Source: Erpobdella octoculata (Eukaryota; Annelida; Clitellata; Hirudinida; Erpobdellidae). From it: a DNA stretch of 64,000 nt. The DNA lies in assembly GCA_963978895.1 (NCBI GenBank), contig OZ022247.1, forward strand, positions 22,837,871 to 22,901,870. The letters are read 5' to 3'. The first letter of the stretch is position 1; the number at the start of each line of letters is the position of its first letter. Below the pieces are notes generated by a model. The model was not told the DNA's origin. It made no database searches and saw only the letters and a program-made list of their open reading frames with translations. The position numbers were made by a program, and so were the translations under genes. Of the stretch, positions 2,481 through 39,000 are shown piece by piece.

Positions 2481-2857
2481 GTATAGAAGAGTATTCTTGT
2501 ATGTTTGCATGTATGTAACAGTATGCATATGATGATGATGAAGAAGAAGAAACTAAGCACTTTTAAAATGCAAACGCTAACAAACAAAACAAACGATGAA
2601 ACATGTATAAACGGAAACAAAACGCAAACTCTTAAACATATGATAAAAATTTCTATAAAGTAAAATTATATAGTATATATATATATATATGTAGATGTAT
2701 TTATGTGTGTGTGTGTGTGTGTGTGCGTAATAAGGGCATGACAGAACTTATAGAAATTCCCATGACCGCTGGCAGGCTGAAAATTGCATCACCTCCGATT
2801 GGGCCAGACCCGAATGTGCCCGACCAATTGAAATGAAGTTCGTAGAAATAAAACAAA

Positions 2858-2863
2858 TTTATT
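2858..2863 (-). terminator. Candidate poly(A) signal of the spectraplakin
   Basis: The minus strand reads AATAAA here, about 565 nt after the stop codon at 3428-3430. It is one plausible signal; a 3' UTR of this length is ordinary, but other variants nearby cannot be excluded. Confidence 0.3.
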
Positions 2864-3427
2864 GTCAACGACATCGTCGAAAACCTGCCGTAGCAAATAA
2901 AATTAAAAACAAAACGTCACAAATTGAAAAAAATGAAAAAAAAAATCACAAAAATATTCAAATAAATAAAAATTCCCAAACATTTTTCTCTAAAAATAAA
3001 ATAATTCATATTTCTTCCACCAATAATAACAGTTTTTTAATTTAATTAATTACATTTTTAAATAATTATTTATCTTAAAAAAACAACAACAAAGAAACAG
3101 CCAATCAAATGTTGCTTCAAAGAGTTTTAATGCTTTTCTATGTTTATCAATAGTTTGTGCGATTGGGCAGAAAAGCTAAGCCTATCGTCATACGTCGTAC
3201 GTATACTGCAAGATGTCTACAGGTAAGGAGTTGCAGAAGTGATATCATTGGATGATGATAACACGACAAGTGTGTATATTGGTGTCTATATATATATAAC
3301 AAAGAGTGAAAGAAGGAAATGAAGATGAAAAACATGGCGGAAGATCGTCATCATCATCATCATCATCATGATTTGGCTAAGAGTTTGTCAACAACATCAA
3401 CATGTAATCGTGTCCACGACCACCACG

Positions 3428-24051: not shown

Positions 24052-27000
24052 GCAATTATATATATATATATAAAATTAGTTTTCACCACATGAACGCGTG
24101 ATCATTCCGTTCAACAACAACTTGAAATAATATAATTACGAGCGAGCAACCAACAGCTGCTTATTACATTTATTTGTACTATCTCGGAACAACGTCGTAA
24201 AAACATAGCATAGAATAATTAATGCTTACCTTATCGGTGAACTGTTTCAACGACATCTTCGTCAGGTCCATAGAGTTCAGGGTCACTAGAGCGGGAATCA
24301 GCCAATCATTGAATCTGTTCAATGTGGTCTTGAACTCTGCGACCTTTGACTTGACTTCTCCGACCTCTGATGCTCTTCGCTTGCACGTGGAAGAGTCGCT
24401 TTTGATGCGCTTGCTCAGCTGCTCCTGACGGAATGAAGACAGGCCAAATCAATGAATGTAGAGAGCAATCATTAACTACTATAAGAACTTCAGCTAATTA
24501 TCTCATCACCACCACTATCACATTACTATCACAACCACCATTATCAAATCACTATCACCACCACCATTTTCACATCACTATCACCACCCCATTACCACCA
24601 CATCACTATCACCACCACCATTTTCACATCACTATCACCACCACCATCATTATCATTCGCATATTGTGGAACCTTCTTTGCTTCTAGAGATGGATTTTCT
24701 TTGGTCTTTATAGATTTCAGAGCTGCTTCCCTGCTTTCCAGTTGAGCCTGGATTTCCCAGAAATCTTGTAGCGTGGCTTGGATGTTTTCGTCCCTCAAGT
24801 TAACTGTCTCGGCATCTTGAAGACGTTTTTCAATGCCTCTCAGCCATTCGTCCGTTTCCATGAATGCCTCTTCCGGATCCAGAAAAGCCATGTGATTGGC
24901 TAACAATTCACCTATGAATACAAAAAATACCTGTCTAGATCCTGCAAATATATACAACAACAAGTAAGAAATTTAATGTAATAAATAATTACAAATTCAA
25001 TGAAAAATACTTATTAAATAAAACATCTAAGAAATTTAATGTAATAATTACAAATTCAATGTAATAATTACAAATTCAATGTAATAATTACAAATTCAAT
25101 GTAATAATTACAAATTCAATGTAATAATTACAAATTCAATGTAATAATTACAAATTCAATGTAATAATTACAAATTCAATGTAATAATTACAAATTCAAT
25201 GTAATAATTACAAATTCAATGTAATAATTACAAATTCAATGTAATAATTACAAATTCAATGTAATAATTACAAATTCAATGTAATAATTACAAATTCAAT
25301 GTAATAATTACAAATTCAATGTAATAATTACAAATTCAATGTAATAATTACAAATTCAATGAAGAATACTTATCAAATAAAACATCTAACCAGTAAGCAT
25401 CTTCGCCTGGTTCATAATCTTTTCCAACCGATCGCTCAATTCATTCCGTCTCGACTTGACGGATTCGACTACGACATCGTCAGCTCCGAGATCGACGAGG
25501 CAGTTGACGTACGAAGACGACACGTTCGTCACGTCGTTCAACTGCTTCAGTCCGGTCTCGTAGGTCGTCGACATGAACTGCTCGGCGTCCTGATGACGAT
25601 CCTTGTTGAAGAAACAAATTTATCGAATATCATTCAAACTGAATTTCAAAACCACTCAAGGTCTACACTGTTCCGCTCAACCCGTAATGCCGCAAAAATT
25701 TCGTAATCTTCTCTAACCTCTTTTCCTTGATCGCTCTCTCTCAGATCCTCCAGCAAGGCTTCAGCCATCTCGCACCACTCTGTCATTTTAGACTCCACTG
25801 CTTTCAGCGTCAGTCCCAGCTGCTTCATGGTGCCGAGCTTGTCGATCAGGTTGTTGGCGCAGTTTGACAGGTTGTCCGACCTCTCGATGATGGATTTCAA
25901 TAGGTCCGCGTGGTCGTGGTGACCTGTCCTGACGAGCTGCTTGGACGGCAAGTCCGGAGAGGCCTGCGAAGGTCGGAAGGCTTCCAGTCGGTCCTCGAAT
26001 TTCTTTTTTTTTTAATGAAAAAAACATTTTTCAGAAGAATGGAAAAAAAAGATTTCAAGAATATTTTTTCACAACCAACCTGAACGGACGACATGATCAT
26101 CTGAGCGCTGTCTATGATCTTCGGTATTTCTTCCTCGCATTCCTGAGTGTCCTCCAGAACCAGCTGAAGAAAACAAAAAACCAACAAACTTGTATAAAAT
26201 GTTTAAAATTAATTTAGAAGACGTAATTAAAATTAATTTAGAAGTTAGTAATTAAAATTAATTTAGAAAACGTAATTAAAATTAATTTAGAAGACGTAAT
26301 TAAAATTAATTTATTCGAATTTCAACTAAATATTCAAATTAGATCAGCACTGCTCTTCTCACCTGACAAATCCTGACCTGCTCTCTGACCCGGTTGGGAT
26401 CTCCGAGGCTTTTCTGGACGGACCTGATCGCGTCTTCGGATCGCGACACGATTTTATCGAGGTCTCCCAGTCCTTTGTCAAACTTGATCTTTTCGTTGTG
26501 GAGCGACTGGAGAAGTTCGTGCCTCAGCCTGGTTTCATCTCCGACCTCGAAGGTGATAAAATACGTTGTGACAAATTATCAGCACATCGAACGTTAAAAC
26601 GTTTCTCGTGCAACATTAACAGCAATGCAATCATTCCGCAATTATTTCAGCAACATCTCTATCGATCAAAGTCGTCCGAACTGGATGCAACAAGCATGGT
26701 TACATGACCATATGATTATACACATAATAATATGATAATTATATACGATTAATACACAAATCATGAGCATTATGATTATTATGATTATTATTATTAAAAC
26801 AAGTTTTTAACAAGAAAAAGTGACAAATGCCACTAACTCGAAAAATAATAAAAACAACTCAACTCATTTCAATCCACTTACAACCGTTTTCATACAAAAT
26901 ACCACCATTTACAACAACAACAACAACCACTACAATACTCACAGAGTCCATGAGGACGATGACCCGATCAGTGAGGTCATTGAACTTGTGCCTGAGGTCA

Positions 27001-30000
27001 GTCGACGGGTTAGAATCGAGAAGGAGAGATGATTTCATGAGAGAGTGCTCGACCGATGCCAGTCTCGACTCGTATTCGTTCAAGATTTTCTGAAAGTATT
27101 TATTCAATTTAAATGCATTCATGGAAACAAATCATCACTCAGAAATAACTTGAACAGGTGTCTGCTAAAAAAAACAGCCTTTCTCTCCCTGGTTGCATTT
27201 ATAGTTATCAGAGTGCCCACTCATCCCCACCACAAATCTAATCCCCCATCAAGGAGAACGTACCTTGCTGTCGGCAAGATGTCTTTCGATCCTCCCGTTG
27301 GAGTTCAGCGAGTCGTATGTCGAACCCTCCGTGCACAGCTGCAGCTCTAAAGACTCCAACCAATCGTGGTGTTCGGTCAACTCTTTCAAGATGCTTCCCT
27401 CCAGGGTGTCTGGTTTTTCCTCCTCTTCTTGAACTTTCGGTTTTTCTTTTGCAACGACCTTCCTGTCTTCATCGAGACGTTCTTTGAATTCTATTCCTTC
27501 TGAACTTGCTGACGTTTTTGTTCCATCCACCATGAAAGTTTGATCTTCTTTGGCAGAAGGCTTCAAACCAGGTTGCAGAGTTTCATGGAAATGTTCATCT
27601 CCTAAACTTTCTTGCTTGGGCTTGAGATGATCATCTTCAGGACAAACAAAATCTGGATCGAGCTGTTTGGTCAATTTACTTTTAAAGACATCTCCGTTTT
27701 CAAAGTCTTTTCCCTCGTCAGGATCTTTTGCCTGATCGTTGAAATCTTGCTCTTCCTTATCATCATCTTCACATTTCTCTGTCACTTCTCTTTCGAGCAC
27801 ACGATAGTCCAACTCTCCGCCTCTTGCTTGGTCCTCACTGAGCTTCTCGAGAGCAAAGTCCACCAACCTCTTTGCATATTCTTCAGCAAAAGTGACAACT
27901 TGACGTCCATCTCCTTCTGGTTCTTCTTCGTCATCGTCGTCATCTCTGACCTCGCTAGGAGGAGCAGTTTCACCACCTTCATCATCAGCATCGTGGTCTT
28001 CATCCCTCTCTCTGATCGGTTGGCCCGAAGGTGCAGTGGAGATTTTTTCCGTCGACTGTTTTCCTCCGCTGGAAGACGAAGAGGAAGAAGAGATGGCGTC
28101 CTCTTCCTGAATCACGGAGAGACGGTGGCTGCTGTCGCTCCTCTCTACCGGTTGCTGGCGTCTGTTTGGCAGAATGACGGCATCTCTGAGCGAAAGAACC
28201 TGCCCGGTGTGAATATTTATGACATTGCCGTTGCGGGAGTCCAGAATTCCGCAGGCCGTTGCTGTGGCGACAGCCATGACCTTCCCGGTGGCTGGGTCAA
28301 CAATGAGTGACCGTGAGTCTATCAAACCGTTGTCGATGGCTTCCTGGAGAGCAAAACACATGCCACAGGTGGGGTCGTAAAACTTGCCAGTTTCCTCGTT
28401 GAAAAGCCCTATGTCGACCGCCGTATTGAGATTCATCGGAAGAGGTATTATAATGCCCCTGCGGGCCGCTTCTACCAAAGATATCTTCTTGCGAGCCTGA
28501 GTATCGTACACGGCCCCGGTTCTGTCCGAGACGAGCCCTCGTATCAGGGCCTCTTCTAGACTGCACACATTTTCCGAGGCCGGATCGTTGAGAACGGCCG
28601 AAAGAGGATCGAGGAGATTTTCATCCAAGGCTTCCGTCAAAGTCAAACGCTCGTCTGTTTCCGGGTCAATGAAATGACCGGTGACTGGATCGTAAAGACA
28701 AAGATCGAGTATCTTCATGAGACTCAGAGGACGTTCCAAGCTTTCTCCTGCTTCCAGATCTCCTTCGTCGGTGAGAAAACCTTTTTGAACGGCATCCGCA
28801 ATGGCCATGAACCCTCCGCCCTCCAGGGCAATATCGCCCGACTTCAAGCTGACGCAGCCACGTCGTAGCAGCTGATCGAAAGTGTTGCGTTTACCAGTCC
28901 CGGGGTCACGGAAAACCGTGCAGCGAGTGATGATGAGACCCCTATCCATAGCTTCCACAAGAGTGTACTGGCGTCCCGAAGCCGGATCCCTAACCAGATT
29001 CGTCTGCGGGTCGAGAATTCCAGACTTCGCAGCATCGACGAGTCCGTACGATTGCCGAGCCTGAGTGATGACGTCGACCGGGCCGCCGATCAATTCCTCC
29101 TTGGGTGGTCGTTGTACTTCCGAGGGTCGCTTGGCGACCGATGTCTGAAGGAGATGATCGTCGGGAGAAATCTCTGGAATGCTGTCGTCCATTATGAGCC
29201 CGCTGTCGAGAGCTTTGGAAAGAGGAAGCGGCGTTCGGTCGTCGGCATAATACAACCCGGAACTGGGATCGATCAACTGCCTCTGGATGGCATCCTTCAG
29301 ACCGATGACCTCCCCGGAATCAAGGTCGGCCACTACTTTTTCATCCACGTCGATCAAACCCTTATCGATGCATTCTTCTAGTGTCATCATCTTACCGCTA
29401 TCCGGATCGATAAACATGTTCATGTCTGCATCGTACCAGCGACTCTGAAGAATCTTGGTTAGAGAGGTGACGCCAGTCCACGCATCGTCTACTTCCGATT
29501 TAGAAGTTTGACTAGCGGTTTTGGTTTCATCATCGACAGATTCGTCTTCAGTTCCTTTTCCACCATTTTCTGGTACATCTTCAGAAGAGCCTGTTCTCTT
29601 TACAGCTTCAGACTCATCTTCTTCTTGTCCGCCAGTTCGGCTTTCGATGATTCCCACTTTTGTCTTTTCTTCATCGTCAAGCCATTCATTTCTACTGTCT
29701 GTATCAACTTCAAGATCCTTAGAGAGGATCTCTTTAGAAACGGTTTTTGAATAATCCTGATCACCTGGTAAGTGACCTGTCCCAGAACCATCATCATGCT
29801 TCATCTGAGATTCGAATGCTCCCCCGGGACCTTTGGCACTATCAGATTGGTCTAATTTGTCATCATCTTTCTCTTTCTCTCCCTCTAACAAAATCTCAGA
29901 TTCACTTCCTGCTCCTTTACCACGATCATCACTAGCAGCGATGCCAGGCGGTTCCTTTGCAGTCGCTGTGAGCGGTTTCTCCAACTGAAGCCCTACCTCC

Positions 30001-33000
30001 TTTGCTGGGCTTGTGTCGATGGATCGGGGATGGTTGAGCCACTCATCTTGAGGATGGTCTCTATTGAAGACCTCTGGATGTCGATCAGGAGTTCCCTTCA
30101 AAGCCTCTGCGATGGCCATTCCTGCCACAACTGGCGCTCCAACAACAGCCATGAGACCCATACCGATGACTTTTGCAGTAGAAACTAAATCCGACTTTGA
30201 CCTCTCTGAATCCTTCTCTGTTGATGATACTGATGGTGAGACAGAACCAGGAATGTCCACTTTTTCGTCCTTTTTTGGGTCGTGGGAGGGCAGGGGTTTG
30301 TCAGATTTTGAAGTAACATCTGGTTTTTGCGGACCTCCAACGTCTTCCACACCTGTTCCTGGTGAACTTTCTTGGTCATCTTCTACAGGGACTCTGTCAC
30401 CCCTGGCAATGTCACCGCCTCCATCTCCAGATTCTTCTTCAACACCTGGAATTTCTTTAGGACGTTCTTTTTCATCTTTTTGCTCAACCAAAACAGGATG
30501 TGTCGCGGCACTACTTTCTTCATCCTCGTTGTCAACCGTTTTTGGTCCTGCGTCCGTTTTTCTCTCTTTCTCATCACCTGACATCTCAGTGGCCATAGTC
30601 CCCTCTTCAAAGCCTTCCTGTGACGATGGCTGATCAACCACCTCACGATCGATATCAGTGATATCACCACCTGTTCTCTTCTTCTCAGTAGATGCTGCAA
30701 GTTCTTCATTCCCGCCGGTCAAAATCTCACTTTCATCTTTTTCACCGGGGATTGAAAACGCATCTTTCACCTTCAATTCATCATCGTCATCTTCAGGACC
30801 TTCGTGTTTCTCAAAGGTATCATCTTGCTCGCTACCTCTTCGAGTAACTTCTTCGCTTTCACTTTCCTTACCGTCCAGAGATTCAGATGCTGTCACTTTC
30901 TGGCTTTTGTCATCTTCGCTGGCCTGAACTGATGGAGATTGTGGTGGTTTTCTATCATCCTCAGCAGATTTCTTCTCAGATGTTTTTTCCGACTCATCTT
31001 CTTTAACGATGTCGAGATCATCAGCTGGTTCCAGTGGCAGCTTGTCACCTCCATCACCTTGCCGATCTACCTGGTCAGGTGATACGACGTCGTCATTAGC
31101 AGCTGGCTGCTCCTGAACTTTGCTGTCATCTTCAACAGCCAGCCTCGTCTCCCCATCGAGCTCACCTCCTGGCAGCAATGTGGGTGTTTTTTCATCAACT
31201 CCAGAAAGAGCAACTGATTCACCTTTATCATCGTAACTGCCACCAGGTGAAGCAGGTTGGTCTTTAATTACATCAGTCTCAGAATATTTCCGATCTTTCT
31301 CAGCCGCATCTTGTGGGGAGCTCTTAACAACTTCAGGAGGCTTTGCATCCTCAAAAAATTCATCTTCGTCTTCGACGATGGTTTTGGAATCCTCCTCGAT
31401 TGCATTATCTTCCTTCGGAGCAGTCTCATCACTAGCCTCCTTCCATTCTGCATCGGAGCTTTCTGCATCGCTGACCTGCAATGGAGTCTTTTGCCATTCA
31501 TCGTTTTCAGTCGACTTCGAGTTTAGAAATTCTTCTGGAAATTTCTCAGTAGCACCTGGTGTACCCTCTTTGACTGGTCTATCAGGCTTCAATTCACCGC
31601 TATCTTCTATGTCACTCCCATCCAAATCAGCCTCATTGGTACTTGTATCCGTGTCATGTTGTTCACCACTTATACTTCCATCAGGGAAAGATATTATTTT
31701 CCTGCCACCATCATCTCCTTTCTCTTCTTGTGGAGATTCAGCGATCACCTCACCTGACACTTCCTTCTCTGGCGATGGAAGCAAATGAGCCGATAGTTCA
31801 TCATCATCATCATCTTTTGAAATTTCACCACCTTTGGGCGTGTCAGCATCGTATTTAGGCAATTCAGGCTTTGTATGCTTAGAAGAATCAGGATATTTCA
31901 GCTTCTCTGAAGGTTGAGCAGCTTCTTCTTCTTCTTTGAGTGCTTTGTCTGTTTTTTCCAATGCTTTCGACTCGCTATCCTCATCAGATTTTTCTCCATT
32001 TCCTTCAGATTGAAAACTTTCTGAAGGTTCAATTTTCCTGCTTCCACTTTCCTCATCCAGGTGATGCGTCCCCTCATCTTCATTCATGGCTCCATCTGCT
32101 TCCACTTTCCATGGATCACTTCCAGCACTCGATTCATCGGGACGACGATTATGACCATCATCATCAAGACCTCCATCACCAGTGACATCCTTGATTCTAA
32201 TACTGCTCTCAAAAGACTCGTCGAAATGAGTCGAAACGTCAACTGAGGGCGCACCGGAATCATCGCAACTTTGCTCATCTTTTCTTTCATCCGTCTCCTT
32301 TTTATCGAGTTGTTTTTCAGGTGCTTCCACGTCTAGACGTGCAGAAGAGTCGGGATCATTTTCGTCTCGAGACCCACCTGGGTGTTCCATGTTTTTCCAC
32401 TTCAAAGTCTCGTCGGTATCAACTTTGTCGTCAACCGTAGGCGTCGACTCCTTTTTGTTGACCGGAAAAGTGATTTCGACCTTTTTGCTGTCGACCTCCA
32501 GGGTGACCTGATCATCGTATTTCTTTTCCGTCGTCTCTCTGCCGTCCAAACCGGTTTCTTGATCTTTATTCTTATCGAATGTCTCCTCTATTGGAGAAAT
32601 AAAATCGAAACCTTTCTCTCTTTCTATTGGCAATCTCAAAATTTCATCCTTTGGACCGGTTGAGTCCTCACCTGAGCCCAAAAGTGAGCGATCTTTCCCA
32701 GGGAATGTGACAGTGACTTTATTCGGTTCAATGTCTAGAGTTATTTTGTCTTGGAACTTTTTGTCTGACGTCTCCAATTCAGGTTGCCGTTCGGAATCTT
32801 TGCCGCGTGGAATGTTAGCTGGAGAATCATCCTCCGTCGATCCTGGAATGAAATCTGTGGCAGTCGTGGGAGAAATATTAACTGTCGTTGCTTGAGACGA
32901 GTAGGACGAGAGTAAGTCAGCAGAAGAATCTGGCTTCGAAACAAGTAACGTAAACTTTGTTGGAATGGAGGCAGAATCGTCCAAAGAAAGTTTCATTGAA

Positions 33001-36000
33001 GGATCAGCATCTCTTCTTGTGCCATCTTCTTCGCCAACATCCTTCTCGCTTTCATCATCTTTTCTCACCTGATTTAGGTAAGACATGAAATCTTCATCTT
33101 CTGTCATTGAGATCTTCTCCTCCTCTTTTCCACGACAGCCAGACTTCTCCAGCTGGTCGCCAAGCTGATCGACATTTCGTTCCTCGTCTTTTTCGTGTTC
33201 TTCGGCATTTTCTCCACCTGTTCCGTCTTTACTCACCTGGCTCAGGTAAGATAGGAAGTCTTCATCTTCCTTAGCTGGAACCTTTCTAGGTTCATGCTCA
33301 TGGCAACCTGACTTTTCTAGACCATCATCGAGGTGATCATTTTCAGGAGAATGAATCTTATCTCCATCTTTCTCCATAGCTGCACTGGCATCATCATCTC
33401 TCTCCATGGTGGCACGATCATCAACATCTCTCTCCATGGTGGCACGGTCATCAAAATCTTTCTCTGCTCCTTCATGTTCTTTCTCTTCAAGTTTTTGATC
33501 ATGTTTCTTGCTGTCATCATGCTTACTCACCTGCTGAAGATAGTTCATGAATTCTTCATCTTCAAACACCACAGCTTTACCATGACCCTCTCCATGGCAG
33601 CCCAACCTCTCCACGTGATCATCCAATCGTTCGCTTTCTTTTGGTTCGTCCTCTTTAGACTGTGAAGATTCAGTTGGGAAATGTTTTTCACCTTGACCCT
33701 CATCGGTTGGCTTTGTTTTGCTTTCGGGTTCGGCCTTTTCTTCTGCTTCTTTTTTGCTCACCTGACCGAGATAAGACAAAAACTCTTCATCTTCAACTGT
33801 AGATGGCTTGTCTTTACTGCATCCAACATTTTCAAGATCATCTCCAAGTTGATGAGTCTTATCCAGTTCACTTTCATCCTTTTCTCTATCAACTTCATCT
33901 TTACTTTTCTCTTCCCTTCTCACCTGATCAAGGTATCTCAAGGACTCTTCATCTTCTAAAGTTGGAATCTTCTCTTCGTCTTCTCTGAGACAACCCGATT
34001 TCTCGATGGGACCGCTAAACTGATCCTCTCCTGGTTTCTCACTTTTCTCTGCGACCTCATCCGTCCCATCTTCATCTCCTCGGTCCTCATCATATTTACT
34101 CACCTGGTCCAGGTATGACATGTAATCTTTGTCTTCTGGCAATACGACTCTGTTTGGATCATCTTTATAACAACCTGACTTTTCCAGAAAGTCGTGTCCA
34201 GGCATGCCGCTTTCATCAATTTGTTCAACTTCGAACTTGCTGGTATCTTTATTTTCAACTTTGTCACGTTCTGATTGATTTCCATCTTCTGTGGATTCCT
34301 GAACACCTGTTGTACCTTTATCAGACTTACTCAGCTGATCAAGGTACTTCGCGAACTGATCGTCTTCTGGTACGAGCATTTTTTCGTCATCACTCCCGTA
34401 GCAGCCGGATGTCTCCAAGTGATCACTAAACTGACTGTCTTCAACATGCTGTTCATCTTTAACAGTCTTACAGGGTTCATCTCCATCTTTATCATTGTTT
34501 CTCATCTGAATCAGGTGTGATGTGTGGTCTTGACCCCCTGGAGATGCATCTTGAACCTCGCGATGATCACCCTCTCTCGTACTTTCTTCTGCATCTTCAT
34601 GACCTGCGTCATACTTTTTGTCATCTTTTGCTGTCTGACTCAGGAAGTTCAGAAAATCTTCATCTTCTAAAGTTGAAACTTTCCCACTATCATCTTTACA
34701 TCGTGCAGACTTCTCCAGTTCAATGCCAGAATGACCAGGCTCCAGTGTTTTGATTTTTTCTTCAACTTGATTGTCACCAGTTTCTTCATCTACTTTGTCA
34801 ACTTCCGGTTCGATTTTTCCTTTTTTATCAAGCTCATCCAAGTGCTCCAGATAAGACAAAAACTCCTCATCCTCTAAAACTGGAACTTTGTTATGATCGA
34901 CTTTTTGGCAGCCAGACCTTTCAAGATGGCCACCAAATTGGTCGCGGTCAGGATCAGGTTTTGTTATTTCATCTGAACTCTCTGCTTCTTTTTTGATAAC
35001 AATCTCACCTTGATCACCCTGTGCTACCCGATTCAGGTAAAGCAGGAATTCTTCATCTTCTAACTTTGGAACATCCTCCTTAGAGCATCCAGTTTTTTCC
35101 AGATGGTCCTCAGATGGCTCGTGATGACCATCGCCACCATCTTTCTTTTTATCTAGGGCATTTTCATCAACTTCACCTCCTTTCATTTGATTCAGGTAGG
35201 CCAAATACTCTTGATCTTCCATTGTTGGTACTTTGCCAGGATCTTCCTTGAAACAGCCCGACTTTTCCAGATGATCGCGAAACTGTTTAGCATCTGTTTC
35301 CTCATCTTTTGCTATTTCAACTTTGTCATCCTTGCTCACCTGACCCAAGTAATTGATGAAATCTTCATCTTCTGAATTTGGAATATCATCTTTTCGACAA
35401 CCAGACTTCTCAAGATGGTCAAGTAAATCATTCTGGCTTGTCTCATCATTTTCGACCTTGTGCCACTTCTCGGGTACACTTGACCCTTCACCTGTGTCCT
35501 CAAAACCCTCCTTTTGTTTGCCATCTTTTCTGAGCTGGTTGAGATAAGACAAATATTCTTCGTCAGCAATATCTGGAAGGTCTTCTTTCGTATGGCAACC
35601 TTTTCTTTCAAGATCATCTCCATACTGGTCGCTCGCTGGTTTTTCATCAATCCCTTCTTTTAAATCACCTGTAACCTTTTCACCTTCATGTGTTTTTTTC
35701 ATCTGCTCCAGGTAGGATAAGTACTCTGCATCTTCTGAACCTGGAACCACGTGTTCTCCATCTCCGAAACATCCAAATCTCTCAACGTGGTCTCCGTTCT
35801 CATCTCGTTCAGAGGTTTTTTCTGGAATTTCAATTTCTGTTCCATCGTCTTTCCTGCCTTTCCCTGGGTGAGATAAGTATTGCTCATCTTTTGATGTTGG
35901 AACTTTGGCACCATCGTTCTTGTGAAGACCAGATTCGTCTAAGTTATCACCAAATTGGTAATGCTCTGGTCTTTCTTGCTGATCTCTGGCACCAGTACCA

Positions 36001-39000
36001 GCATCACCTTTGTCTTCTCCACTCACTTTGCTCAGGTATGTCAGAAATTCATCATCTTCTGGCCTTCTGCTATCTTTACAGCATCCTCCTGATTGCTCCA
36101 GGTGATCATGTTCCAGTTCTTCATTCTCATCCTCTCTTTCTCCAATCGGACTTGTCACCAAATGATCGTCTTCAGCAGTGGAGACTTCATCATCGCCATC
36201 AACACCTTCAGAAACCGGTCCGACAAAATGATCGTCAGCCACTTTTATAACAGCTTCTCCTGGCTTCACAAAGTCATCATCTCTGGGAATCTCATCATCC
36301 GCTTCTTGAATCACAATTTTGACAGCATCTATCCCAGAAGTATCCACAACTTTCTCTTCAGGGGTCGGACACTTCCCCTTGGTTCTTTTTACAATGGAGG
36401 GTTTGAGATTCTCTACGTATTTACCCCATCCGCCATTGTCGAATTCCCTGCCTAGGTCGGTGGTCTCACCCTCTTGTCCAGCCTGCTTTTCGTCCTCAAA
36501 GCTAAATTCAGATTCCAGCTTTGGCGACTTGCCGACTGGCGACACCAGGTGTTCGATGAATGTGATTATGCTGGTGGAAACTGAAAACGAGCAAGTCATT
36601 GCCATCAACATCGCTGCCGTGTCTGCAGTCATCATTCTTTTTTCGTGACATTCCTCGAAGGTCAGGGGTCGAGCCGCAGAAGGTAACCTCATCCGGCCGG
36701 TGTCGAAATCTATCCAGCCCCTCTCGAGACAATCGGGCACATTCAAGACGGTTTTGTTTTCCAACGTGATTTTCGAATCAGTCAGAAGACTGCAAAGATC
36801 TTTCGTTATCAGCAACTCATCTTGAGCTTCCTTCAGACTCAGCCACCTTCCTTCCGGCAAGACGTAGTAAATCGAGTTCGGCGTCGTGGAAGAGTCGATC
36901 TCCAGGACGCCGTACTTCAGTGCTTCTTCCAGGCTCAGTCTCTTTCCAACTTGTGATGAAGAATGTCTCAAATCTACAACTGGTTTTTCTGTCGAATTGA
37001 AAGTCCTGTCAAGGATTTGGTATTTCCCGGCATTCAAGAGTTTAAATATTGTTGGCAAGTCCACAGAAGTCTGCCTGACAGACAATAATCTGCCAGTTTC
37101 TGTTTCCATGATGGCCTTCACCTCAGAGTCAATGACATCCCGATTCCTAACGTTCTCGGCGATGCCGATTCGAGGAACCACTACCAAGATGCTGGCGTTT
37201 CCCGACCGATCGAATGTGGGGAGAGAATAATAGATGAATGCATCGGCTGGTGACACGGCCTTGAAGACGAGACTGTGATTGACGGCCTCCTGCAGGTTCA
37301 CAGATGTCGGGCCTGCCCAGTGAGCCTTTGAAGTCACCATTCCCTGATCTGGATCAAACACCCCTTGCCTTGCAGCTTTCTCCAGGTTGTAGATGAGGTT
37401 TGATTTGTCTGCCAAGAACCTGTCCAAGTTTGGATCGATCAGTCCAAGGTCGATAGCTTGCCTAGGAGTGTACGAAGTTCCGGAAAACACGTCAACGATT
37501 TGACCCGAAACTGGATTGAAAAACTCGTTTTTAATGCAATCCGTCAAAGAGAGTGGACAGGCCGCATCCAAGAGAGAGCCCGGATTGTAGAAGGCACAGA
37601 TCCTCTCGGACCTGTCCATCGTCATCGGCTGTCCGTGAGTCTGGAAATGACCAATTAAAACCAGTAATTAAGTAAATTCATAAAATTATAAAAATAATAA
37701 ATAAATTATTAGAATCTTGAAATAATATATGATAATGAAATTGAAAAAATGAAAGCTACTTTTACAGAAACAACAAACATTCGAGAACGACATAAAAAAA
37801 TTATATAAAGTCATCTTTGACCTCTTCGGCAACAACAGTTTCTGCTCTTTTGATTCGTGTGACGGTCTGCATAACAAAGTCACTCTTCACTCTCTTCCCA
37901 TCATCACCAGTGACTTCGTCCGGAGAAATGGCGACCGCTTCTTCGTGAATGTCATCCCGGGCTGAAGCGGGACGGCGTTCTACGGAATGGGCATCGAGAC
38001 CGGGGTGTTCCATATCTTCGGGGAGATCATCTCTCAGTCCCGTATCTATATCCGTCTCACGGAATGTATCTCTTTCATCTTCTTCTGGTTTCTCGACAAA
38101 AATCGACTTTTCGCCGTCTCGTTCACGTCTCGCATCATCGTTTGGTGACCCGACAATTCCCCGGCCATCCGTTCTACCTTCACCGTTGTCCCCCGGAGTA
38201 GTGCTGCTGCTATCATCTCCAGTGCTGTACTCCTCCTTTACGACCATCGGAATCGACGGATGATGAAGGACGGGCGGACTGAGCTGATCTTCCGACGAGG
38301 AAGACGGGTCGATGTAAACGTCATCTTCGTACTCGTCATCCTCCATGAAGGAGTGGTGGTGATAATCCGGGCCGTCGTGAAGCGGATCGGGCGAAAAAAC
38401 TTCGGTGGTGGTGGAATAATCTCTGTCTCCCCCTTCGTGACTGCCGGTGAAAGGAGGAACGGGGGGAGAAGGAGGATTGTCAAGTTCTGTTGTCGACTGG
38501 TAGGAGGAGTCGGTAATGCCGATGCCCGTCATCGAGCCCTGAAAAATTATAATTGAACACCATTTAAATAATCCTATTAAATATCTACCAACTCATTTAA
38601 AACCAATTACTCGTCAATATTAACCACATAAACGTGAAATGATATTTCCACTCACTTCTTTCCACGGATGTTCGTCGTAATCTTTTCCATCCCTGATTCC
38701 TCTCTTGACCCCACCTCCGTCGACCCCCTTTCTACCGCCGTCGTCATCTTCCATCAAATCTTCGTCGCCGGCTCCGACGTACGAAGCGGACGACATCATC
38801 GACTCCGACATGGTCGTCACCACTCCGGCGTCGCCCGAGGTCGTCGACGTCACCATGGTAGCGGCGGCGGCGGAAGCGGCCAGGCGCTCGTGGATGGAGC
38901 GGGCGACTTGCCGACAGTAGGCGAGTTCGTTCTCGAGTCGCATCAGTTTGGAATTGCTCAGAGAACCGCCGCTCTGAACTTTCATCAGGTACTTTTCGCC

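What the first reader, a model, noticed from the sequence alone, without database searches (positions are those of the whole stretch)
33050..36130. Unrecognised acidic Cys-containing repeat, ~17 copies, inside a spectraplakin exon
Seen: a motif centred on HLEKSGC and [15 protein letters not shown] recurs about every 55-75 residues with one nearly invariant Cys per copy, in otherwise disordered acidic sequence. Plakin and spectrin repeats have different signatures. Inference: each copy may be a short linear binding site, giving ~17-fold avidity for one partner, or the Cys array may form redox- or metal-dependent cross-links. Copy-to-copy divergence suggests an old expansion held by selection on the core.
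Basis: partly seen in the sequence, partly recalled or inferred. Interest (0 to 1): 0.85.

Follow-up and report, generated by a model that had tools for sequence, protein, structure and literature searches.

The report
Cysteine-and-helix repeat array in spectraplakin
A giant cytoskeletal linker protein of an unnamed animal carries sixteen copies of an undescribed short motif (one cysteine plus a short acidic helix) strung along a disordered stretch; a related species keeps the same core, so it is probably a row of docking sites, but the partner is unknown.

Summary
One long exon (3,459 codons) of a complete-looking spectraplakin gene carries 16 copies of a ~35-residue unit, DxLEKSGC-x(7-11)[15 protein letters not shown], 51-100 residues apart, in acidic sequence. 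A profile built only from another species' copies finds 15 of 16 above 10 bits; none of 200 locally shuffled ORFs exceeds 8. That homologue (P0001, unnamed ENA entry) has 13 copies at a ~105-residue period: core shared, spacers and copy number not. Cys is in 15 of 16 window copies and 13 of 13 in P0001, and rare in the disordered sequence otherwise. Codons are randomised at 18 of 25 testable positions. No Pfam, NCBIfam or PDB match is significant; 66 other plakins found (arthropod, nematode, 7 unnamed) lack it. AlphaFold2 gives one confident amphipathic helix per unit and no confident packing between neighbours. Best reading: a multivalent array of helical binding motifs, partner unknown. The helix shares hydrophobic spacing with LD motifs and KANK1's talin-binding helix but lacks their defining residues, so talin is only a lead. 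Unexpected: 7 of 16 copies contain a consensus splice donor in frame with the next exon.

The parts
27264..37640 (-). plakin-repeat (PRR/PRD) exon of the spectraplakin gene, 3459 codons, starts and ends in phase 0
   Evidence: ORF; acceptor TTTCCAG|ACT and donor AGCAAG|GTACGT read by eye; Plectin PF00681 E 3e-27; P0001's spliced model joins at the same place
35997..36128 (-). copy 1 (aa 538 anchor; Cys shifted by one)
35829..35960 (-). copy 2 (aa 594; degenerate, no Cys, 0.5 bits by the P0001 profile)
35673..35804 (-). copy 3 (aa 646)
35505..35636 (-). copy 4 (aa 702)
35310..35441 (-). copy 5 (aa 767; contains CAG|GTGAGC)
35157..35288 (-). copy 6 (aa 818)
34998..35129 (-). copy 7 (aa 871)
34812..34943 (-). 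copy 8 (aa 933; first row of the structure prediction)
34605..34736 (-). copy 9 (aa 1002; Cys shifted by one)
34305..34436 (-). copy 10 (aa 1102)
34074..34205 (-). copy 11 (aa 1179; contains CAG|GTGAGT)
33894..34025 (-). copy 12 (aa 1239; contains CAG|GTGAGA)
33732..33863 (-). copy 13 (aa 1293; contains CAG|GTGAGC)
33501..33632 (-). copy 14 (aa 1370; contains CAG|GTGAGT)
33207..33338 (-). copy 15 (aa 1468; contains CAG|GTGAGT)
33039..33170 (-). copy 16 (aa 1524; contains CAG|GTGAGA)
26943..27089 (-). next exon of the gene (KILNEYE..., phase 0)
   Evidence: read by eye; boundaries inferred from AG/GT and the open frame

Best explanation
The array is a multivalent set of short binding motifs in a disordered part of the spectraplakin's plakin-repeat region. 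Each unit has a short turn ending in Gly-Cys (LEKSGC), a variable 7-11 residue linker, and an acidic-capped amphipathic helix ([14 protein letters not shown]) whose hydrophobic face F-x-x-YL-x-x-V docks on a partner, most likely a helical-bundle protein. Many weak sites on a flexible tether would give high avidity for a clustered or polymer-bound partner. Shown: the repeats, the shared core in two species, and that core residues persist while most silent sites have drifted. Predicted: the helix and the absence of confident packing between copies. Inferred: purifying selection, that the units bind a partner at all, and the avidity. Guess: a talin-type bundle as partner, linking adhesions to microtubules as KANK does.
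For: Core shared by window and P0001 while spacers and copy number are not. At 18 of 25 positions with 30 or more identical-residue pairs, codon variety does not differ from permuted codons, among them Cys (42 differing of 78, 40.0 expected), Gly (74 of 105, 74.7), the Leu and Ser of LEKS, Phe and the Tyr. Hydrophobic residues are concentrated in the core (26% against 12% in spacers). AlphaFold2 on 29 aligned units: helix at residues 23-43, pLDDT 93-94 over residues 21-40; a two-copy model keeps two helices with a low-confidence linker and pTM 0.20. The pattern O-O-x-O-O (O hydrophobic) at FLSYL is met in 26 of 29 units and occurs once outside the units in residues 391-2700. Talin lead: hhalign aligns the unit helix with the KANK1 KN helix in the register [16 protein letters not shown], score 15.2, above all of 300 shuffled KN peptides and 600 windows from the presumed spectrin rods of 4 homologues.
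Against: No partner, expression or splice data. Silent sites are not fully randomised: overall 847 differing codon pairs against a permutation mean of 1,020 (0 of 1,000 permutations as low), with 7 of 25 positions at P below 0.05, including the L of YL and the S of FLS, so part of the similarity may be residual descent. The two species' copies form two separate groups in the tree (99/98 support, 35 columns), so only the core type, not individual copies, is shown to be conserved, and between just two species. The talin lead was picked by eye before testing; its hhalign probability is only 10.5%, the best shuffle scored 15.1 and the best rod window 14.8, and the KN motif's PYG patch and the leading I/L-D are absent. 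The binding reading does not explain why the residue after Gly is Cys rather than any hydrophobic residue.
Confidence: 0.68

Rival explanations
1. Each unit is an LD/KN-like talin-binding helix: the spectraplakin binds talin directly through many copies (specific form of the best explanation).
For: O-O-x-O-O in 26 of 29 units; register match with KANK1 F45-x-x-Y48-V49 (residues as named in PMC10281804, passages); hhalign above all 300 + 600 controls; KANK links talin-based adhesions to microtubules (abstract starts, passages).
Against: I/L at the first LD position in 0 of 29 units; no PYG patch; probability 10.5%; no hit of the unit profile to the KN entries in the PDB; in the solved KN complex Y48 points away from talin; chosen after the fact.
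Confidence: 0.15
2. The Cys array forms redox- or metal-dependent cross-links, the helix being a spacer or dimer contact.
For: Cys is nearly confined to the motif: 16 of the 18 Cys between residues 434 and 2765 of the window ORF lie in copies (copy 1 has two), and all 13 Cys between residues 575 and 2277 of P0001 do.
Against: One Cys per unit with no conserved His or second Cys near it; several helix positions are at least as conserved as the Cys; the protein is cytosolic by family (recalled). L-x-x-x-G-C also fits a helix C-cap in which Cys is just the hydrophobic residue after Gly (recalled rule).
Confidence: 0.12
3. Acidic entropic spacer or brush; the repeats are a by-product of tandem duplication.
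For: Strongly acidic sequence and variable spacing; P0001 shows recent unit duplications (copy pairs up to 97% identical); some codons are still shared between window copies.
Against: Core retained at ~42% identity between species with most silent sites randomised; a spacer needs neither F-x-x-YL nor Cys.
Confidence: 0.08
4. Degenerate plakin repeats.
For: The exon carries plakin repeats at both ends and homologues such as P0006 carry many across it; one alignment of the unit with a plakin-repeat profile gave P 0.047.
Against: With register-fixed profiles 5, 26 and 15 of 100 column-shuffled profiles scored as well; a single plakin repeat of the window gave no alignment; the plakin-repeat profile finds 1 weak hit before and 7 after the array, none in it; Pfam Plectin does not hit the 6 units tested.
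Confidence: 0.05

Closest known systems
LD motifs (paxillin, RIAM, DLC1, CDK1) that dock on talin rod domains and similar helical bundles
   Same: Short amphipathic helix with O-O-x-O-O hydrophobic spacing and acidic residues at its start
   Different: Leading I/L-D replaced by acidic residues in all 29 units; preceded by a Gly-Cys turn; 13-16 copies
KN motif of KANK proteins (binds talin R7)
   Same: Helix spacing D-x-[DE]-F-x-x-Y-[LV]-x-x-[VI]-x-K
   Different: No PYG/beta-hairpin half; an array, not a single motif; no significant family match
Plakin (plectin) repeats of the same exon in other spectraplakins
   Same: Same exon and position in the gene
   Different: Different sequence, acidic and probably disordered; profile comparison at chance level
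Plakin repeat region of the Drosophila Shot-PH isoform
   Same: Corresponding exon of the orthologous gene, included by alternative splicing (passages)
   Different: Reported there as functionally unexplored; the motif is in none of the 66 other homologues examined here, none of which is named as Drosophila in the lists shown

Membership tests
Spectraplakin | CH domains, plakin domain, plakin-repeat exon, spectrin rod, EF-hand/GAS2 on one gene | tested here: met
   tblastn exon series in gene order on the minus strand, 12 homologues together; a 42-residue C-terminal exon is 93% identical to spider and ostracod; plectin match E 4e-4. Domains assigned by homologous order, not by a domain scan
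LD motif | O-O-x-O-O hydrophobic pattern on a helix | tested here: met
   26 of 29 units; helix predicted
LD motif | I/L-D at the start (I/LDxOOxOO, PMC10281804 passages) | tested here: not met
   0 of 29 units have I or L there
LD motif | binding to talin, FAT or a similar bundle | not testable with these tools
   needs a binding assay
KANK KN motif | significant profile match; PYG and LDLF patches (PMC9145010 passages) | tested here: not met
   No KN hit in Pfam for the ORF or for 6 of 16 units, which gave only sub-threshold WKF and JmjN; no PDB hit to KN entries; hhalign probability 10.5%
Plakin repeat | match to a plakin/plectin-repeat profile | tested here: not met
EF-hand | 12-residue loop with fixed spacing before the helix | tested here: not met
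   P0001 has one sub-threshold EF-hand hit (17.4 bits, cut-off 27); the stretch between Cys and EDEEF varies from 7 to 11 residues
Spectrin repeat | three-helix bundle, Pfam match | tested here: not met
   no spectrin hit in the ORF (E up to 1) or 6 units (E up to 10); one main helix per unit

The most novel reading that the evidence does not exclude
The array is dual-coded: each unit encodes a docking helix and, at its Q-V-[S/R] end, an in-frame consensus splice donor (CAG|GTGAGN in 7 of 16 copies, phase 0 like the exon's own ends). Splicing from one or another donor to the next exon would give proteins with different numbers of docking sites, a ladder that dials avidity.
Probability: 0.07. 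Interest if true: 0.88.

Novelty: new variant of a known kind. Interest (0 to 1): 0.55.

Why it matters
The plakin repeat region of spectraplakins is called functionally unexplored, with very little known of its partners (PMC9320987, passages read). Here a lineage appears (inference from the comparison with homologues) to have few plakin repeats in that exon and an array of one conserved short motif in their place. A single synthetic unit is an easy bait, so the partner of this region becomes directly testable. If the partner is an adhesion protein, the array would be a many-site microtubule-to-adhesion link of a kind I know no example of.

Tried and rejected
Rejected: plakin-repeat relic, EF-hand, spectrin or any Pfam family at significance, NCBIfam (a prokaryotic library), PDB relatives (best E 1, fluorescent proteins, chance). 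PHROGs and PADLOC were not searched. The Atg8-binding pattern [WFY]xx[LIV] is not formed by FLSY (recalled pattern, read by eye). A direct hmmsearch of the KN peptide against the unit profiles reported nothing, so that shuffle control was void; hhalign was used instead. Splice donors: a first threshold of 9 bits was unreachable for the matrix, and at 7 bits the ORF has 5 sites (3 in the repeats) against a permutation mean of 1.5 and maximum of 5 in 500, i.e. only borderline; the stronger result at 6.8 bits uses a threshold chosen after seeing the copies' scores. Literature: four motif strings found in 0 papers; a search on lophotrochozoan spectraplakins gave nothing useful in the 15 listed of 742. 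Per-copy dN/dS between species was not possible: I held no DNA for P0001. Foldseek/VIA searches were not run, because a single helix would match anything.
Full report
What is there. The minus strand of the window holds a complete-looking spectraplakin gene. tblastn with 12 homologues gives, between them, exon matches in gene order at about 50.6-45.2 kb (calponin-homology part), 44.8-43.9 and 39.6-39.4 kb (plakin-domain part), 21.9-9.9 kb (spectrin-rod part) and 9.2-6.4 kb (C-terminal part) (no single homologue hits them all, and the parts are named by homologous order). Between them lies one long exon, 27264-37640, its ends read by eye from splice signals, coding 3,459 residues inside a 3,472-residue ORF. 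It has plakin repeats near both ends: a profile from P0006's plakin repeats gives one weak hit at residues 241-262 and seven at 2745-3164 (Pfam Plectin E 3e-27). About 2,300 residues between are acidic and poor in hydrophobics.

The repeat. Sixteen copies lie at 33039-36128. Consensus over both species: xQxxDxLEKSGCxKDxxxKxPxxEDDEFxSYLxQVxKxD. Spacing is 51-100 residues, median 60. A profile from the other species' 13 copies alone finds 15 of the 16 above 10 bits and the 16th at 0.5 bits; 200 block-shuffled ORFs gave none above 8 bits. Among 1,483 six-frame pieces of the window only this ORF scores above 5 bits, with a profile that includes its own copies.

Relatives. Three protein searches gave 1, 4 and 65 hits, 67 different proteins in all. 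P0001 (ENA, unnamed, 2,285 aa) aligns over residues 9-1667 at 31% (54% over residues 9-390) and has 13 copies 91-109 residues apart. A combined profile finds no copy above 8 bits in the other 66; the best is 5.0 bits in P0039. Of the 65 hits, 58 carry names, all arthropods or nematodes, and 7 are unnamed. The search reaches only relatives that share exact 5-residue words and fall in set length ranges, so absence elsewhere is not shown, and the species of the window and of P0001 remain unknown. P0006 (ENA, unnamed) is 40% identical to residues 2761-3172 but has plakin repeats and no array.

Age and selection. Over 35 columns, window copies average 44% identity to each other, P0001 copies 71%, and between species 42%; the tree separates the two sets (99/98), with most inner forks unresolved. 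So either the array grew separately in each line from a shared unit, or copies were homogenised within each line. In the window, 25 positions have 30 or more pairs of copies with the same residue; at 18 of them codons vary as much as permuted codons do (for instance Cys 42 differing pairs of 78, 40.0 expected; Gly 74 of 105, 74.7 expected), including all 10 such positions in the LEKSGC half. At 7 of 15 in the EDEEF half they vary less (P below 0.05): V22, Pro (3 of 40), the E of ED (13 of 91), the S of FLS, the L of YL, and the Q-V pair (11 of 67 and 11 of 39). Overall 847 differing pairs against a permutation mean of 1,020. So the copies are old and residues outlast silent sites at most positions, but the drift is not complete.

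Splice-donor oddity. The positions that keep their codons include CAG GTG AGN, a consensus 5' splice site. At 6.8 bits or more on a recalled matrix the ORF has 9 donors, 7 of them in phase 0 and all 7 at this place in copies 5 and 11-16; 1,000 synonymous permutations gave a phase-0 mean of 0.7 and at most 4. The threshold was set after seeing these scores; at 7 bits the ORF has 5 sites, 3 of them in the repeats, against a mean of 1.5 and a maximum of 5 in 500 permutations. Only 18 sites of 6.8 bits or more occur on the sense strand of the whole window, and the seven donors that I inferred by eye at exon ends nearby score at most 6.89. The exon's ends and the next exon are in phase 0, so splicing from these sites would keep the frame. 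Against a function: shared descent can also preserve codons, AGN serine codons cannot easily change to TCN, and 0 of 13 P0001 copies have the Q-V-[S/R] needed, so the donor is not conserved there. In Drosophila, deleting this exon caused unexpected splicing defects (PMC9320987, passages); that is context only.

Structure. AlphaFold2 with 29 aligned units gives a helix at residues 23-43 with pLDDT 93-94 over 21-40 and a short weaker helix at 6-10 (mean pLDDT 80.2, pTM 0.43). A two-copy model (8 rows) has mean pLDDT 61.9, pTM 0.20 and two separate helices. This suggests beads on a flexible string, not a solenoid.

Mechanism. The simplest reading is a multivalent docking array. Its helix has the O-O-x-O-O spacing of LD motifs in 26 of 29 units and once elsewhere in residues 391-2700. 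The KANK1 KN helix, confirmed in PDB entries 8as9 and 8ivz, aligns in register by hhalign (score 15.2, probability 10.5%) and scores above 300 shuffles (best 15.1) and 600 windows of presumed spectrin rods (best 14.8). But I chose KANK by eye first, the leading I/L-D is missing in all units and the PYG half is absent, so the unit is not a KN or LD motif; at most it works like one. The Cys is confined to the motif (16 of 18 Cys at residues 434-2765 here; 13 of 13 at 575-2277 in P0001), which says it matters but not how. As L-x-x-x-G-C it may simply close a helix cap (recalled rule), or act as a thiol.

Verdict.

Noticed in passing
35340, 34104, 33924, 33762, 33531, 33237, 33069 (last exon base, minus strand): Seven of 16 copies contain CAG|GTGAGN, a consensus 5' splice donor in phase 0, as strong as or stronger than the seven donors inferred by eye at nearby exon ends.
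   Followed up: partly
31332-31472: Two short blocks after the array are conserved in P0001: SDAExSDxxWKEASDE and an acidic stretch ending in EFFEDAK / VFEDAK; the latter resembles a FFAT (VAP-binding) motif by recall.
   Followed up: no
30093-30161: Hydrophobic segment [23 protein letters not shown]; a strict pattern for it recurs in 11 of 67 homologues; unexplained.
   Followed up: no
32454-32519 and 32193-32249: Two further blocks conserved with P0001 ([21 protein letters not shown] and [19 protein letters not shown]).
   Followed up: no
33365-33464: Short tandem repeat in a spacer, period 30, 3.3 copies ([10 protein letters not shown]...).
   Followed up: no
25041-25360: Intronic array of a ~20-base unit (attgaatttgtaattattac) just after an exon (read by eye).
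   Followed up: no
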